From Azoarcus sp. L1K30 (GTDB lineage Bacteria; Pseudomonadota; Gammaproteobacteria; Burkholderiales; Rhodocyclaceae), in the NCBI RefSeq assembly GCF_018122735.1, contig NZ_JAGRRD010000001.1:3577190-3641189 (forward strand): DNA of 64,000 bases, in the 5' to 3' direction. The stretch's first letter is position 1; every line of letters begins with the position of its first letter. The translations under genes and the position numbers were made by a program. Below the pieces are notes generated by a model. That model saw nothing but the letters and a program-made list of their open reading frames with translations, had not been told where the DNA came from and searched no databases. Shown here piece after piece: positions 20,897-57,203 of the stretch.

Positions 20897-20979
20897 GAGA
20901 CAGTCGGGTGCATTTGCTCCAGGGCTGCGGAACTCGCTCGGACAGCCCTCGCCCTTGCACAAACACACCCGACTGTCTC
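20897..20979 (-). repeat. Palindromic stem-loop element, copy A (urtB-urtC gap)
   Basis: Outer arms of 20 bases (20897-20916 and 20960-20979) pair with two mismatches that become G-U pairs if the minus strand is transcribed. Inside are a 4x4 internal loop, a 4-bp inner stem (AGGG 921-924 / CCCT 952-955) and a 27-base core (20925-20951). The core is 26/27 identical to that of copy C. Strand is given as the one reading CGAGGrCTGTCCGAG then GAGTTCCGCAG. With copy B it fills most of the 305-base gap; the remainder holds only the urtC ribosome-binding site (AAGGAGG). Confidence 0.8.
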
Positions 20980-21022
20980 TGGCATCGGGGCATCACTAGG
21001 CAAAAAAGGCGTGAGCGGACCA

Positions 21023-21121
21023 GCGATGGGTGGGGTGTTCGTGGCGCAGGCGAGGACTGTCCGAGCCGAGCGCAGCGAAGGTGAGTTCCGCAGCCTGCAG
21101 AACGAATGCCCCATCCATCGC
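21023..21121 (+). repeat. Palindromic stem-loop element, copy B, inverted relative to A
   Basis: Outer arms of 20 bases (21023-21042 and 21102-21121) pair fully on the plus strand if three G-U pairs are allowed. There is a 3x3 internal loop, a 5-bp inner stem GCAGG/CCTGC (21046-21050/21094-21098) and a core (21051-21093). The core has the same CGAGGACTGTCCGAG and GAGTTCCGCAG blocks separated by a 16-base insertion. Arm sequences are unrelated to copies A and C. Confidence 0.78.
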
Positions 21122-21180
21122 GAAGCGCAGGCACTGCCCGTCGGGCCACAACGAATCAAGGCAACCAAGGAGGCGCCAGA

Positions 21181-22380
21181 ATGCGCACCCCATTTACCGT
21201 AAGACTGATCCAGAGCATGCCGCGAAGCGGCTGGATTGCGCTCGCGATCTTCGCCGCCATTACCTGGATCGGCATTCCCGCAGCGCACCTAATGCTGCCG
21301 GAATCGAGCCCGCTACATTTGTCCGCTTACACCATCAGTCTGCTCGGCAAGATCCTGTGCTACATGGTCGTTGCCGTGGCAATGGACCTGATCTGGGGCT
21401 ATGCGGGCATCCTCAGCCTGGGGCACGGGCTGTTCTTCGCGCTCGGCGGCTACGCCTTCGGCATGTACCTGATGCGCCAGATCGGTCGTGACGGCAGCTA
21501 TGGTTCGGATCTGCCAGACTTCATGGTCTTCCTCGACTGGAAGGAGTTGCCCTGGTACTGGGCGGGCTCGGACTCCTTCCTGTGGGCCATCTTCCTCGCC
21601 ATGGCACTGCCCGGCGTGGTCGCCTTCATCTTCGGCTACTTTGCCTTCCGCTCGCGGATCAAGGGCGTGTATTTTTCCATCATCACCCAGGCGCTCACCT
21701 ACGCCGCGATGCTGCTGTTCTTCCGCAACGAGACGGGCTTTGGCGGCAACAACGGCTTTACCGACTTCAAGCGCATCCTCGGCTACAGCATCACCTCGCC
21801 CGAGATGCGTGTCACCCTGTTCGCGCTATCGGCGGCGCTGCTGGTGGCTTGCCTGATCCTCGGTCGCTACCTGGTGAGTTCACGGTTCGGACGCGTGCTC
21901 ACCGCGATTCGAGATGCCGAATCGCGCGTCATGTTCATCGGTTACAACCCGCTGCACTACAAGCTCTTCATCTGGACCCTGTCGGCCGTGCTGTGCGGTC
22001 TTGCGGGTGCGCTTTACGTGCCGCAGGTGGGCATCATCAACCCGTCGGAAATGAGTCCGGCCAACTCGATCGAACTGGCCGTGTGGGTGGCTGTCGGCGG
22101 GCGCGGCACGCTGATCGGCGCGGTGCTGGGTGCCGGCATCGTCAATCTGGCCAAGAGCTACTTCACCGTCACCGTGCCGGAGTACTGGCCGTTCTTCCTC
22201 GGCTTCCTGTTCATCGCCGTCACCTTGTACCTGCCCGATGGCGTGGTCGGTCTTTGGCGCAAGCTGCGCGCGCGAAAGGGACCGGACAGTGCGGGGGTGA
22301 GTGAGACGGCGGTTCGTAAGGCGTCCGAAACCGAAAACACGACGCCGGCCAATTCGTCAGCCAATGGAGCACGGGCATGA
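21181..22380 (+). CDS. urtC: Urea ABC transporter permease UrtC
   Basis: 399 residues from ATG 21181, preceded by AAGGAGG. It is a LivM-type inner-membrane permease with eight to ten TM segments and the family motif DLIWGYAGILSLGHGLFFALGG. A hydrophilic loop (YGSDLPDFMVFLDWKELPWY) and a C-terminal polar tail of about 40 residues are usual for UrtC. With UrtB it forms the urea channel. It overlaps urtD by 4 bases (ATGA). Confidence 0.94.
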   Translation: MRTPFTVRLIQSMPRSGWIALAIFAAITWIGIPAAHLMLPESSPLHLSAYTISLLGKILCYMVVAVAMDLIWGYAGILSLGHGLFFALGGYAFGMYLMRQIGRDGSYGSDLPDFMVFLDWKELPWYWAGSDSFLWAIFLAMALPGVVAFIFGYFAFRSRIKGVYFSIITQALTYAAMLLFFRNETGFGGNNGFTDFKRILGYSITSPEMRVTLFALSAALLVACLILGRYLVSSRFGRVLTAIRDAESRVMFIGYNPLHYKLFIWTLSAVLCGLAGALYVPQVGIINPSEMSPANSIELAVWVAVGGRGTLIGAVLGAGIVNLAKSYFTVTVPEYWPFFLGFLFIAVTLYLPDGVVGLWRKLRARKGPDSAGVSETAVRKASETENTTPANSSANGARA

Positions 22381-23240
22381 TGCAGACCACCGATATCGAG
22401 CGTGCCGCAAACGAATCCACGGCGAACGCAGGCAACCTTCGCGAACAATGGGAAAGCGAGGCAACGACCAGTCACCTGGTGACGGGCGAGCTCGACCTGT
22501 CGCATAACGTCATTCTGTATCTCGACGACATCACGGTCAGCTTCGACGGTTTTCGCGCACTGAACAAATTGTCGCTCGCCATCGATGCCGGCGAACTGCG
22601 CTGCATCATCGGGCCCAACGGTGCGGGCAAGACCACGATGATGGATGTGATCACCGGCAAGACCCGGCCGGACGAGGGCAAGGCGTTCTTTGGCCAGACC
22701 ATCGATCTGACCCGGATGACCGAGCCGCAGATTGCGCATGCCGGCATTGGCCGGAAATTCCAGAAACCGACCATTTTCGAGAAGCACACCGCGTTCGAGA
22801 ACCTCGAGCTGGCGATGAAGGCCGACAAGCGCGTGCGCCGCAGCCTGTTCGCGAGTCTGTTCGACGACGAGCGCGACCGCATCAGCGATGTGCTGAAGCA
22901 GATCCGGCTGGACAAGGAGGCCGATCGCAGCGCTGGCCTGCTGTCGCACGGGCAGAAACAGTGGCTGGAGATCGGCATGCTGCTGATGCAGGAGCCGCGT
23001 CTGCTGTTGCTGGACGAGCCGGTCGCCGGCATGACCGACGATGAAACCGAGCGCACTGCCGAGCTCTTTGTCAGCCTCGCGGGCAAGCACTCGCTGATGG
23101 TGGTCGAGCACGACATGGCCTTCGTCGAGGCGCTGGGGGGCAAGGTCACCGTGCTGTGTGAAGGTTCTGTGCTGGCTGAGGGTGACCTGGCTACGGTGCA
23201 GGCAGATCCGCGGGTGATTGAGGTTTATCTGGGGCGTTAG
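22377..23240 (+). CDS. urtD: Urea ABC transporter ATP-binding protein UrtD
   Basis: 287 residues from ATG 22377 overlapping the urtC stop; a second ATG at 22380 is equally possible. An N-terminal extension of about 45 residues precedes the ATPase core. Walker A GPNGAGKTT lies near residue 79, and Walker B LLLLDEPVAGM is present. The signature is LLSHGQKQW instead of LSGGQ, which is the form seen in UrtD proteins. The LivG-like insertion and VVEHDMAF are present. It energises urea import with UrtE. Confidence 0.94.
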   Translation: MMQTTDIERAANESTANAGNLREQWESEATTSHLVTGELDLSHNVILYLDDITVSFDGFRALNKLSLAIDAGELRCIIGPNGAGKTTMMDVITGKTRPDEGKAFFGQTIDLTRMTEPQIAHAGIGRKFQKPTIFEKHTAFENLELAMKADKRVRRSLFASLFDDERDRISDVLKQIRLDKEADRSAGLLSHGQKQWLEIGMLLMQEPRLLLLDEPVAGMTDDETERTAELFVSLAGKHSLMVVEHDMAFVEALGGKVTVLCEGSVLAEGDLATVQADPRVIEVYLGR

Positions 23241-23284
23241 TGTTTTGTTTCTGTGTTGTATGTGCCGCTAACGGCGGTCCCGCG

Positions 23285-23347
23285 GGGTATTTCTACCATG
23301 GGCTGCGGAACTCGCTCGGACAGTCCTCGCCCATTACGGAAATACCC
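23285..23347 (-). repeat. Palindromic stem-loop element, copy C (urtD-urtE gap)
   Basis: Outer stem GGGTATTTC/GAAATACCC (23285-23293/23339-23347, 9 bp perfect, weaker pairing continues outwards to about 23265/23368), a 4x4 internal loop, inner stem ATGGG/CCCAT (23298-23302/23330-23334) and the 27-base core (23303-23329). Orientation matches copy A. The arms differ from those of A and B while the layout is the same. It occupies much of the 255-base gap between urtD and urtE. Confidence 0.8.
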
Positions 23348-23495
23348 GGCGTCGCTGGCGGTAAGCAGCACAGTCCGCCTCCTCGCAGAACCATAAATTT
23401 GTCTTGAACTGGCAAAACCGCGCCCGATTCTTGCTAATGAAACCCTGACCCAAGGCCCCGGGCCACGAGCCAGGAAGCGCCGAAAGGAAAACATC

Positions 23496-55487: not shown

Positions 55488-57203
55488 ATGGCAAAGATCA
55501 CACGCCGCGCCTATGCGGAAATGTTCGGTCCCACGGTGGGCGATCGCGTACGGCTGGCAGACACCGGGCTGATCCTTGAAGTCGAACACGACTACACCAT
55601 CTACGGTGAGGAGGTGAAGTTCGGCGGCGGCAAGGTCATCCGCGACGGCATGGGCCAGGGGCAGCAGCTTGCGGCCGAGGTGGCCGACACCATCATCACC
55701 AATGCGTTGATCGTCGATGCGGTCACCGGCATCGTCAAGGCAGACGTCGGCCTCAAGGACGGCAAGATCTGGAAGATCGGCAAGGGTGGCAATCCGGACA
55801 TCCAGCCCGGCGTCACCATTCCGGTCGGGGCGGGCACCGAAGTCATCGCAGGCGAGGGCATGATTCTCACCGCGGGTGGCATCGACAGCCATATTCATTG
55901 GATCTGCCCGCAGCAGATCGAAGAAGCGCTGATGTCCGGCGTCACCACCATGCTCGGTGGCGGCACCGGGCCGGCGACCGGCACCTATGCCACCACCTGC
56001 ACGCCGGGGCCGTGGCACATCCATCGCATGCTCGAGGCGGCCGAAGCCTTCCCGATGAACCTCGGCTTTTTCGGCAAGGGCAATGCCAGCCTGCCGGGGC
56101 CGCTCGCGGAGCAGGTCGAGGCCGGCGTCATCGGCCTCAAACTGCACGAGGACTGGGGCACGACACCGGCGGCGATCGACAACTGTCTGAGCGTGGCCGA
56201 GCAGCACGACGTGCAGGTCGCGATCCATACCGACACCCTGAACGAATCCGGCTTCGTCGAAACCACGCTGGCCGCGTTCAAGGGCCGTACCATCCACACC
56301 TTCCACACCGAAGGCGCGGGGGGCGGCCATGCGCCGGACATCATCAAGGCGGTGGGCGCGGCCAACGTGCTGCCGTCGTCGACCAACCCGACGCGGCCGT
56401 TCACGGTCAACACCATCGACGAGCATCTCGACATGCTGATGGTGTGCCATCACCTCGATCCGGCGATCGCCGAGGACGTGGCTTTTGCCGAGTCGCGCAT
56501 TCGCCGCGAGACGATTGCGGCTGAAGACATCCTGCACGACACCGGCGCGTTCTCGATGATGTCGTCCGATTCGCAGGCCATGGGCCGGGTCGGCGAGGTC
56601 ATCATCCGCACCTGGCAGACCGCGCACAAGATGAAGGTGCAGCGCGGCGCACTGCCCGAGGATGGCGAGCGTGGCGACGGCGGGGCAGACAATTTCCGCA
56701 TCCGGCGCTACATCGCCAAGTACACCATCAACCCCGCGATCACTCACGGCATCTCGCACGTGGTGGGGTCGATCGAGCCCGGCAAGCTGGCCGACCTGGT
56801 GCTGTGGAGGCCGGCCTTCTTCGGTGTAAAACCCAGCCTGATCCTCAAGGGCGGCATGATCGCGGCAGCGGCGATGGGTGATCCAAATGCGTCCATCCCG
56901 ACGCCGCAACCGGTGCACTACCGGCCGATGTTCGGCAGTTTTGGCAAGGCGCTCAAGACCTCGGTGACCTTCGTCTCCCAGGCCGCGCTGTCCAATCCAG
57001 CGGTGGCGGCACTCGGCCTGAGCAAGCCGTTGGTGGCGGTAAAGGGCTGTCGCGAAGTGAAGAAGTCCGACATGGTACTCAATGGGGCGATGCCGCACAT
57101 CGAAGTCGATCCCGAAACCTACATCGTGCGCGCCGATGGCGAACTGCTGGTGTGCGAGCCAGCGACCGAATTGCCGATGGCGCAGCGCTATTTCCTGTTC
57201 TGA
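55488..57203 (+). CDS. ureC: Urease alpha (catalytic) subunit
   Basis: 571 residues from ATG 55488, the family length. It hydrolyses urea to ammonia and carbamate at a bi-nickel site. Visible ligands: HIHWICPQQ (two metal histidines), carbamylated lysine in [34 protein letters not shown], catalytic-flap histidine in MVCHHLDP, and metal aspartate in [10 protein letters not shown]. All are intact, so the enzyme should be active. Most conserved gene in the window. Confidence 0.98.

What the first reader, a model, noticed from the sequence alone, without database searches (positions are those of the whole stretch)
20897..23347. Stem-loop element in three copies with different arms but the same architecture around a fixed core
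The gaps of the urt operon hold three elements (A 20897-20979, B 21023-21121 inverted, C 23285-23347). Each has an outer stem, a symmetric internal loop (4x4, 3x3, 4x4), a 4-5 bp inner stem and a core that reads CGAGGrCTGTCCGAG ... GAGTTCCGCAG. Core A and core C match at 26 of 27 positions. Arm and inner-stem sequences differ between copies yet still pair: AGGG/CCCT, GCAGG/CCTGC, ATGGG/CCCAT. In A and B, every mismatch in the 20-base outer stems is a G-U pair on the strand that reads the core in this direction and an A-C clash on the other strand, which suggests selection on RNA. I cannot tell whether this is a known repeat family, a non-autonomous palindromic element, or a processed RNA.
Basis: seen in the sequence. 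Interest (0 to 1): 0.75.

Follow-up and report, generated by a model that had tools for sequence, protein, structure and literature searches.

The report
Capped intergenic hairpin repeat family
The three stem-loops belong to a scattered family of DNA hairpins whose arms may have almost any sequence but whose tip is nearly the same in distant bacteria, which points to an unknown factor that reads the folded single strand.

Summary
A (20897-20979, -), B (21023-21121, +) and C (23285-23347, -) share a 27-nt cap inside stems of unrelated sequence. A covariance model finds 13 copies in the genome and copies in 26 of 101 relatives. On 61 copies, 96.0% of pair cells pair (shuffled 75.9%), with 403 two-sided changes (shuffled 105.7). 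Across 109 of 148 copies, outer-stem mismatches on the cap strand are 218 G·T against 17 A·C. The bias is the same in copies antisense to both neighbours (59:5) and in both members of inverted pairs (57:3 and 60:5), so it stems neither from the host mRNA nor from a strand-wise mutation bias. Neighbouring copies are inverted in 40 of 41 cases. One inverted pair persists at its site in two genera with compensatory changes. The same cap on other arms occurs in several other phyla, but rarely. Rfam has no match. It resembles REP/REPIN elements but lacks their GTAG tag and a linked transposase; the own genome has neither a Y1 nor a RAYT hit. Best reading: a single-strand hairpin element with an unknown partner, probably acting as DNA. 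RNA is not excluded.

The parts
20897..20979 (-). Hairpin A; cap strand is the minus strand; outer stem about 21 bp, inner stem 5 bp
   Evidence: fold z -7.65; model hit G000:C1:3598085-3598169:-
20925..20951 (-). Cap of A, 27 nt, no tip hairpin
   Evidence: exact pattern match
21023..21121 (+). Hairpin B; cap strand is the plus strand; outer stem 20 bp, inner stem 6 bp
   Evidence: fold z -7.67; model hit G000:C1:3598210-3598312:+
21051..21093 (+). Cap of B with a 16-nt variable tip insert
   Evidence: pattern match
23285..23347 (-). Hairpin C; cap strand is the minus strand; shorter, broken outer stem
   Evidence: fold z -2.93; model hit G000:C1:3600462-3600548:-
23303..23329 (-). Cap of C, 27 nt
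   Evidence: exact pattern match
23262..23371 (.). Outer ends of C (GTGCCGCTAACGGCGG ... CGCTGGCGGTAAGCAGCAC), like the two outer ends of the intact inverted pair of G001; C read as a collapsed pair
   Evidence: comparison of urtD-urtE gaps; inference

Best explanation
A, B and C belong to a dispersed, REP/REPIN-like family of hairpins, here called capped palindromes. Shown: on one strand the element folds into a stem of about 20-30 bp of free sequence topped by a near-invariant cap (CGAG opposite CGCAG, a GGA/TCC helix, a CTGTC bulge, CGAG opposite CGAG, and usually a short variable hairpin ending in C-GNA-G). Pairing on that strand is kept while the sequence drifts. Copies lie singly or as inverted pairs in gaps between genes, and single hairpins and whole pairs have spread within some genomes. 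Inferred: a trans-acting factor binds the folded cap strand, more likely as single-stranded DNA exposed at replication than as RNA. It reads the cap by sequence and the stem by shape, and either moves the element or uses it as a chromosomal site. An inverted pair offers a folded cap on either strand, whichever way a fork passes. The factor is unknown and is not a resident Y1 or RAYT transposase in the own genome.
For: Covariation: 96.0% of cells paired against 75.9% shuffled, 27 of 36 pairs with two-sided change, 0 of 500 shuffles as high. Strand: 218 G·T to 17 A·C on the cap strand; 89 copies with more G·T, 3 with more A·C, of 109. Same bias antisense to both neighbours (59:5 in 24 copies) and sense (31:1 in 15), and in both members of 27 inverted pairs (57:3, 60:5). 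Inverted layout in 40 of 41 neighbour pairs. In-place evolution: of 70 varying outer pairs in 12 orthologous sets, 29 change on both sides with pairing kept, 22 by G·T only; one inverted pair kept in five genomes of two genera. Spread: a whole pair duplicated in G003 at 90% over 279 columns; 20 of 30 G007 copies inspected are single hairpins with similar arms and sharp ends. Tips end in C-GNA-G in 123 of 148 copies; such loops make very stable DNA mini-hairpins (PMC4686876, PMC6479982, passages). A natural swap of the cap pair G-C to C-G supports the cap helix.
Against: No partner was found and no movement was seen directly. G·U at about 10% of outer pairs would also suit RNA, and no expression data were available. 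In Parazoarcus the copies stay in place and covary, which looks more like sites under selection than like a mover. Half of the copies (74 of 148) overlap an ORF in a crude gene call, though known gap copies such as C are among these. Compensatory change could in part come from template switching at palindromes. Spread within a genome is shown only for G003, G007 and G011.
Confidence: 0.45

Rival explanations
1. A structured non-coding RNA (sRNA, small ribozyme or protein-binding RNA) transcribed from the cap strand of each copy; the cap is its active or binding site.
For: Strong covariation and tolerated G·U pairs, in two outer pairs the commonest type; an invariant core with variable stems across phyla is typical of functional RNA.
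Against: No Rfam match in the window or in 8 loci at relaxed threshold, apart from one chance-level miRNA hit. Copies antisense to both neighbours keep the same bias, so each would need its own promoter; the A-B spacer is only 43 nt. No run of T behind the stems seen. Tip loops are GNA triplets, not GNRA or UNCG tetraloops.
Confidence: 0.27
2. Ordinary REP-like elements moved by a RAYT or IS200-type Y1 transposase that was later lost or acts on a variant foot signal.
For: Copy number, inverted dimers and gaps as sites resemble REPs (PMC3733652). GNA tips also occur in enterobacterial REPs listed in PMC2817692. 27 of 38 cap-bearing genomes examined have a RAYT-model hit. A cap lies near a RAYT in three loci (L271/L398, L384, L374).
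Against: Neither Y1_Tnp nor the RAYT model hits G000 (13 copies), G007 (30), G030 (18) or G068 (29 pattern matches, at least one of them probably coding). RAYT hits are as common in cap-free relatives: 12 of 20 against 27 of 38. Only 1 of 20 Y1 loci and 2 of 30 RAYT loci carry a cap nearby, one gene being in both sets, and the genes looked at have other repeats: GGGGTCAG-type or other inverted repeats, GTAG palindromes in L374. GTAG near the stem foot in 11 of 109 copies (4.4 in shuffles).
Confidence: 0.13
3. Old mobile hairpins without present function; arms stay complementary because template switching repairs imperfect palindromes, not because of selection.
For: Palindromes are known to be corrected this way (recalled). 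A hybrid hairpin in G002 shows exchange between members of a pair.
Against: Correction is not expected to spare G·T over A·C on one strand in both members of inverted pairs. An invariant cap across phyla needs a reader.
Confidence: 0.09
4. Transcription or mRNA-decay signals of the neighbouring genes (terminator-like or 3'-end hairpins).
For: Copies sit close behind stop codons and are scarce between divergent genes: 4 of 71 clear cases.
Against: Both orientations in one gap, and the bias does not follow the mRNA strand.
Confidence: 0.06

Closest known systems
REP / BIME elements (GTAG- and CGTC-tagged; PMC3733652 passages and one section, PMC2817692 passages)
   Same: Short palindromes between genes, tens of copies, mostly inverted dimers, avoidance of divergent gaps, GNA tips in some enterobacterial REPs.
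   Different: Stem about 20-30 bp of free sequence instead of a conserved 5-13 bp stem; the conserved part is the tip; no GTAG or CGTC foot tag; no linked transposase; the same cap in several phyla.
REPINs (PMC3116915, passages)
   Same: Inverted doublet as a unit; compensatory changes in the hairpin part; replicating within genomes (here).
   Different: REPINs conserve the two outer REPs and vary inside; here the inner cap is conserved and the stem varies. No RAYT in the own genome.
TIRs of TIRYT genes (PMC3733652, section 16)
   Same: Inverted repeats around some tyrosine transposases in this clade, partly dispersed.
   Different: The inverted repeats seen at Y1 genes here are unrelated in sequence to the cap.
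Integron attC sites and plasmid ssi hairpins (recalled, not tested)
   Same: Work as one folded DNA strand; stems vary, structure is read.
   Different: attC boxes lie at the foot; no integrase or primase gene is linked to the caps.

Membership tests
REP (GTAG/CGTC) | Fixed GTAG or CGTC tetranucleotide at the stem foot | tested here: not met
   GTAG 11 of 109 copies (shuffled mean 4.4), CGTC 4 of 109 (7.2); the 3' foot has its own signal, GCAC 44 of 109 against 14.0
REP (GTAG/CGTC) | Cognate RAYT/Y1 transposase flanked by the repeats | tested here: not met
   No Y1 or RAYT hit in G000, G007, G030, G068; caps near 1 of 20 Y1 loci and 2 of 30 RAYT loci, plus L374
REP (GTAG/CGTC) | Inverted (head-head or tail-tail) dimers | tested here: met
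   33 divergent, 7 convergent, 1 direct of 41; orthologous pairs of several genomes counted apart
REP (GTAG/CGTC) | Between genes, in many copies | tested here: inconclusive
   74 of 148 copies intergenic in a crude call, the rest overlap ORF calls that include known gap copies; 4-30 copies per genome in most multi-copy relatives
REPIN | Doublet as replicating unit | tested here: inconclusive
   One whole pair duplicated in G003 and 600-730-bp blocks in G011; but G007 spreads single hairpins
Known Rfam RNA family | Covariance-model match | tested here: not met
   No match at A, B, C in the window at gathering score; none in 8 loci up to E 5 except a chance-level miRNA
Structured RNA | Transcript from the cap strand | not testable with these tools
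   No expression data

The most novel reading that the evidence does not exclude
The cap is a portable recognition site for a widespread but patchy single-strand nucleic-acid factor that accepts a stem of any sequence. One concrete form: a chromosomal single-strand start or handling site, since the invariant bulge CTGTC holds CTG, the start triplet of E. coli primase (recalled), and inverted pairs would serve both strands. Another form: the cap is a small catalytic RNA or DNA core. Either would be a new class and not a REP.
Probability: 0.2. Interest if true: 0.88.

Novelty: new variant of a known kind. Interest (0 to 1): 0.65.

Why it matters
A 27-nt tip kept nearly letter for letter in several bacterial phyla on stems of any sequence means that something reads it, and no library searched names it. 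If the partner is an enzyme, it is a new single-strand hairpin system. If the family is only a repeat, it widens the REP concept to elements defined by their tip and held in place by pairing on one strand. It also gives a clean handle for searches: cap sequence, strand-specific wobble, inverted pairs.

Tried and rejected
Y1/RAYT as mover: see rivals. My first test used Pfam Y1_Tnp, which misses RAYTs: a clear RAYT in L374 scores only 19 bits there. The RAYT model NF047646 was therefore run on 58 genomes (38 cap-bearing, 20 cap-free), and the absence in G000, G007, G030 and G068 held.

A gene shared by the neighbourhoods: blastp of ORFs from 30 distant loci against ORFs of loci L001-L193 showed, in the 60 top rows viewed, only repeats and ordinary families. 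A transposase between members of wide pairs: the 950-bp pair of G000 brackets an SDR-like gene, the 864-bp pair of G062 an fchA-like gene between fhs- and folD-like genes, the 2-kb pair of G082 two unknown genes; all named by eye. Plasmids and phages: no match for B at E 0.01. Viral contigs: two pattern matches that look like coding chance. Streptomyces matches: those shown lack the CGAGGA half and look like coding chance.

Literature: cap and composite-end words were searched in the PMC library, with only primer-like coincidences by title; topical searches named no such family in the listings seen. 'Not in print' is claimed for that library only. Energy tables could not tell DNA from RNA tips; the cap strand folds better than its complement in 132 of 148 copies with RNA and 131 of 148 with DNA parameters.

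Rows dropped: one search uses 109 of 148 copies; the 39 without a long symmetric stem, most distant-phylum copies among them, were set aside. One search uses 61 of 188 copies (9-nt tip loop, at least 24 of 30 arm pairs). In one search a column with any two-sided change is counted as such even if another member mispairs, and two sets (s11, s12) and the G003 member of A are of less sure orthology. In one search one row had wrong coordinates; that alignment was not used. In one search one cluster merged unrelated copies and was not used. In one search observed pairing exceeds the shuffled mean in 31 of 32 rows but the maximum of 200 shuffles in only 6 (3 ties); five rows do not stand out.

Full report
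What is there. The urtABCDE genes score above the cut-offs of their NCBIfam models. The urtB-urtC gap holds hairpins A (minus strand) and B (plus strand), 43 nt apart; the urtD-urtE gap holds C (minus strand). On the cap strand each folds better than all of 200 shuffles. A strict form of the cap is expected about 1e-7 times in the genome by chance.

The family at home. The exact pattern finds 11 copies in the genome and a covariance model built from 61 copies finds 13. Among 101 genomes, relatives and the own, 26 have hits: 18, 14, 22 and 4 in four congeners, 30 in G007, 18 in G030, 19 in G011, 13 in G050 of another family. One congener, G004, appears to be Parazoarcus communis SWub3, judged by a shared contig length.

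Structure. On 61 copies with a 9-nt tip loop, 96.0% of cells pair against 75.9% in shuffles and at most 46.6% when the partner is slid; 27 of 36 pairs have two-sided changes. In other Burkholderiales loci the middle pair of the cap helix is swapped (GAGCA with TTGCG in L336, L338, L339, L340, L344), which supports that helix. The tip is a C-GNA-G hairpin in 123 of 148 copies.

Which strand, and which molecule. In 109 copies outer-stem mismatches on the cap strand are 218 G·T, 17 A·C and 57 others; 89 copies have more G·T, 3 more A·C. If the host mRNA were the folded molecule, copies antisense to their neighbours should show the reverse. They do not: 59:5 in 24 antisense copies, 31:1 in 15 sense copies, 23:3 in 15 copies between convergent genes; 50 copies overlapped by ORF calls give 95:7. 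If a mutation bias tied to replication or transcription were the cause, the two members of an inverted pair should differ. They do not: 57:3 and 60:5 in 27 pairs, both members with more G·T in 20. So the cap strand itself is kept foldable, as ssDNA or as a separate RNA. Gene directions come from a crude gene caller.

Arrangement and evolution in place. Of 41 neighbour pairs within 1.5 kb, 33 point apart, 7 together and 1 is direct; orthologous pairs of several genomes count apart. In 12 sets of copies with shared flanks, 70 outer pairs vary: 29 on both sides with pairing kept, 22 by G·T only, 6 with A·C, 13 other. At one site an inverted pair is kept in G001-G004 and in G030 of another genus, with arms that differ except between G001 and G002, while G000 has unrelated sequence there. 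In the urtB-C gap, A and B are in G000, G001 and G003; G002 has A and a 3' remnant of B; G004 has none. In the urtD-E gap, G001 and G030 have a pair, G002 a hybrid hairpin, G000 has C, and G003, G004, G005 and G022 have none.

Spread. In the copies at hand from G000, G001, G002 and G030 (13, 15, 13 and 14 of 13, 18, 14 and 18), no two have arms 85% alike, so those sets are old. In G003 a convergent pair exists twice as a block of 279 columns at 90%. In G007, 20 of 30 copies were inspected: single hairpins with related arms (median 72% identical, highest 89%) and sharp ends. In G011 the pair is part of a 600-730-bp dispersed block with further hairpins towards its ends.

Reach. The strict cap is expected less than 0.01 times in that collection. 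Flank pairing around these caps is above the shuffled mean in 31 of 32 rows, above every shuffle in 6. Several of the records are MAGs, so misbinning cannot be excluded for single ones. In even samples the strict cap is rare: 2 of 398 genomes of the own phylum, one of them the own genome, and 1 of 396 of the phylum of G062, which is G062 itself with 14 copies. Patchy, multi-copy presence suggests a mobile element or a site for a horizontally moving factor.

Transposases. Pfam Y1_Tnp hits 37 of 61 relatives but not G000, G007 or G030 and 20 of 25 cap-bearing genomes reached through loci, not G068. Because that model misses RAYTs, the RAYT model was run: 27 of 38 cap-bearing and 12 of 20 cap-free genomes have a hit, and G000, G007, G030 and G068 still have none. 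Caps lie near 1 of 20 Y1 loci, 2 of 30 RAYT loci and the RAYT of L374, which has GTAG palindromes of its own.

What it is. It works like a REP or REPIN: short, in gaps, inverted dimers, one strand folds. It fails two tests of the known REP family, the foot tag and the linked transposase. I call it a new variant of that kind, defined by its tip. The ssDNA reading is preferred for the both-ways orientation, the paired layout and the DNA-type GNA tips; a cap-strand RNA remains a serious rival. No partner was found.

Noticed in passing
window 55637-55926 (-): Rfam 5_ureB_sRNA match (92.3 bits, gathering 40). It may only reflect conserved urease coding sequence on the other strand.
   Followed up: no
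L188 1562-2184; also L333-L340, L344: In other Burkholderiales the capped hairpin sits in a longer composite repeat with CGAGCAGCGCAGG flanks and a TTACTTTCTTTTG...CAAAAGAAAGTAA hairpin near its ends.
   Followed up: partly
L288 1453-2282, L289 1501-2347, L271 6-1269: RAYT-like Y1 genes flanked by GGGGTCAG-type inverted repeats; two have perfect 29-31 bp palindromes beside them.
   Followed up: partly
L374 211-877: A RAYT of a Gallionellales MAG flanked by GTAGGGTGCAT palindromes, about 280 nt from a capped hairpin.
   Followed up: partly
L373 1620-2563: In a Coriobacteriaceae MAG both gaps of an fhs-fchA-folD-like operon hold a capped hairpin, in opposite orientation (genes named by eye).
   Followed up: no
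L081 around 750-979: In a Gemmatimonadetes MAG contig end, pieces of the cap recur in tandem in a low-complexity array.
   Followed up: no
L305 (G000:C1:3967987-3968222): Where five relatives hold an inverted pair, the own genome has another GC-rich stretch with direct repeats.
   Followed up: no
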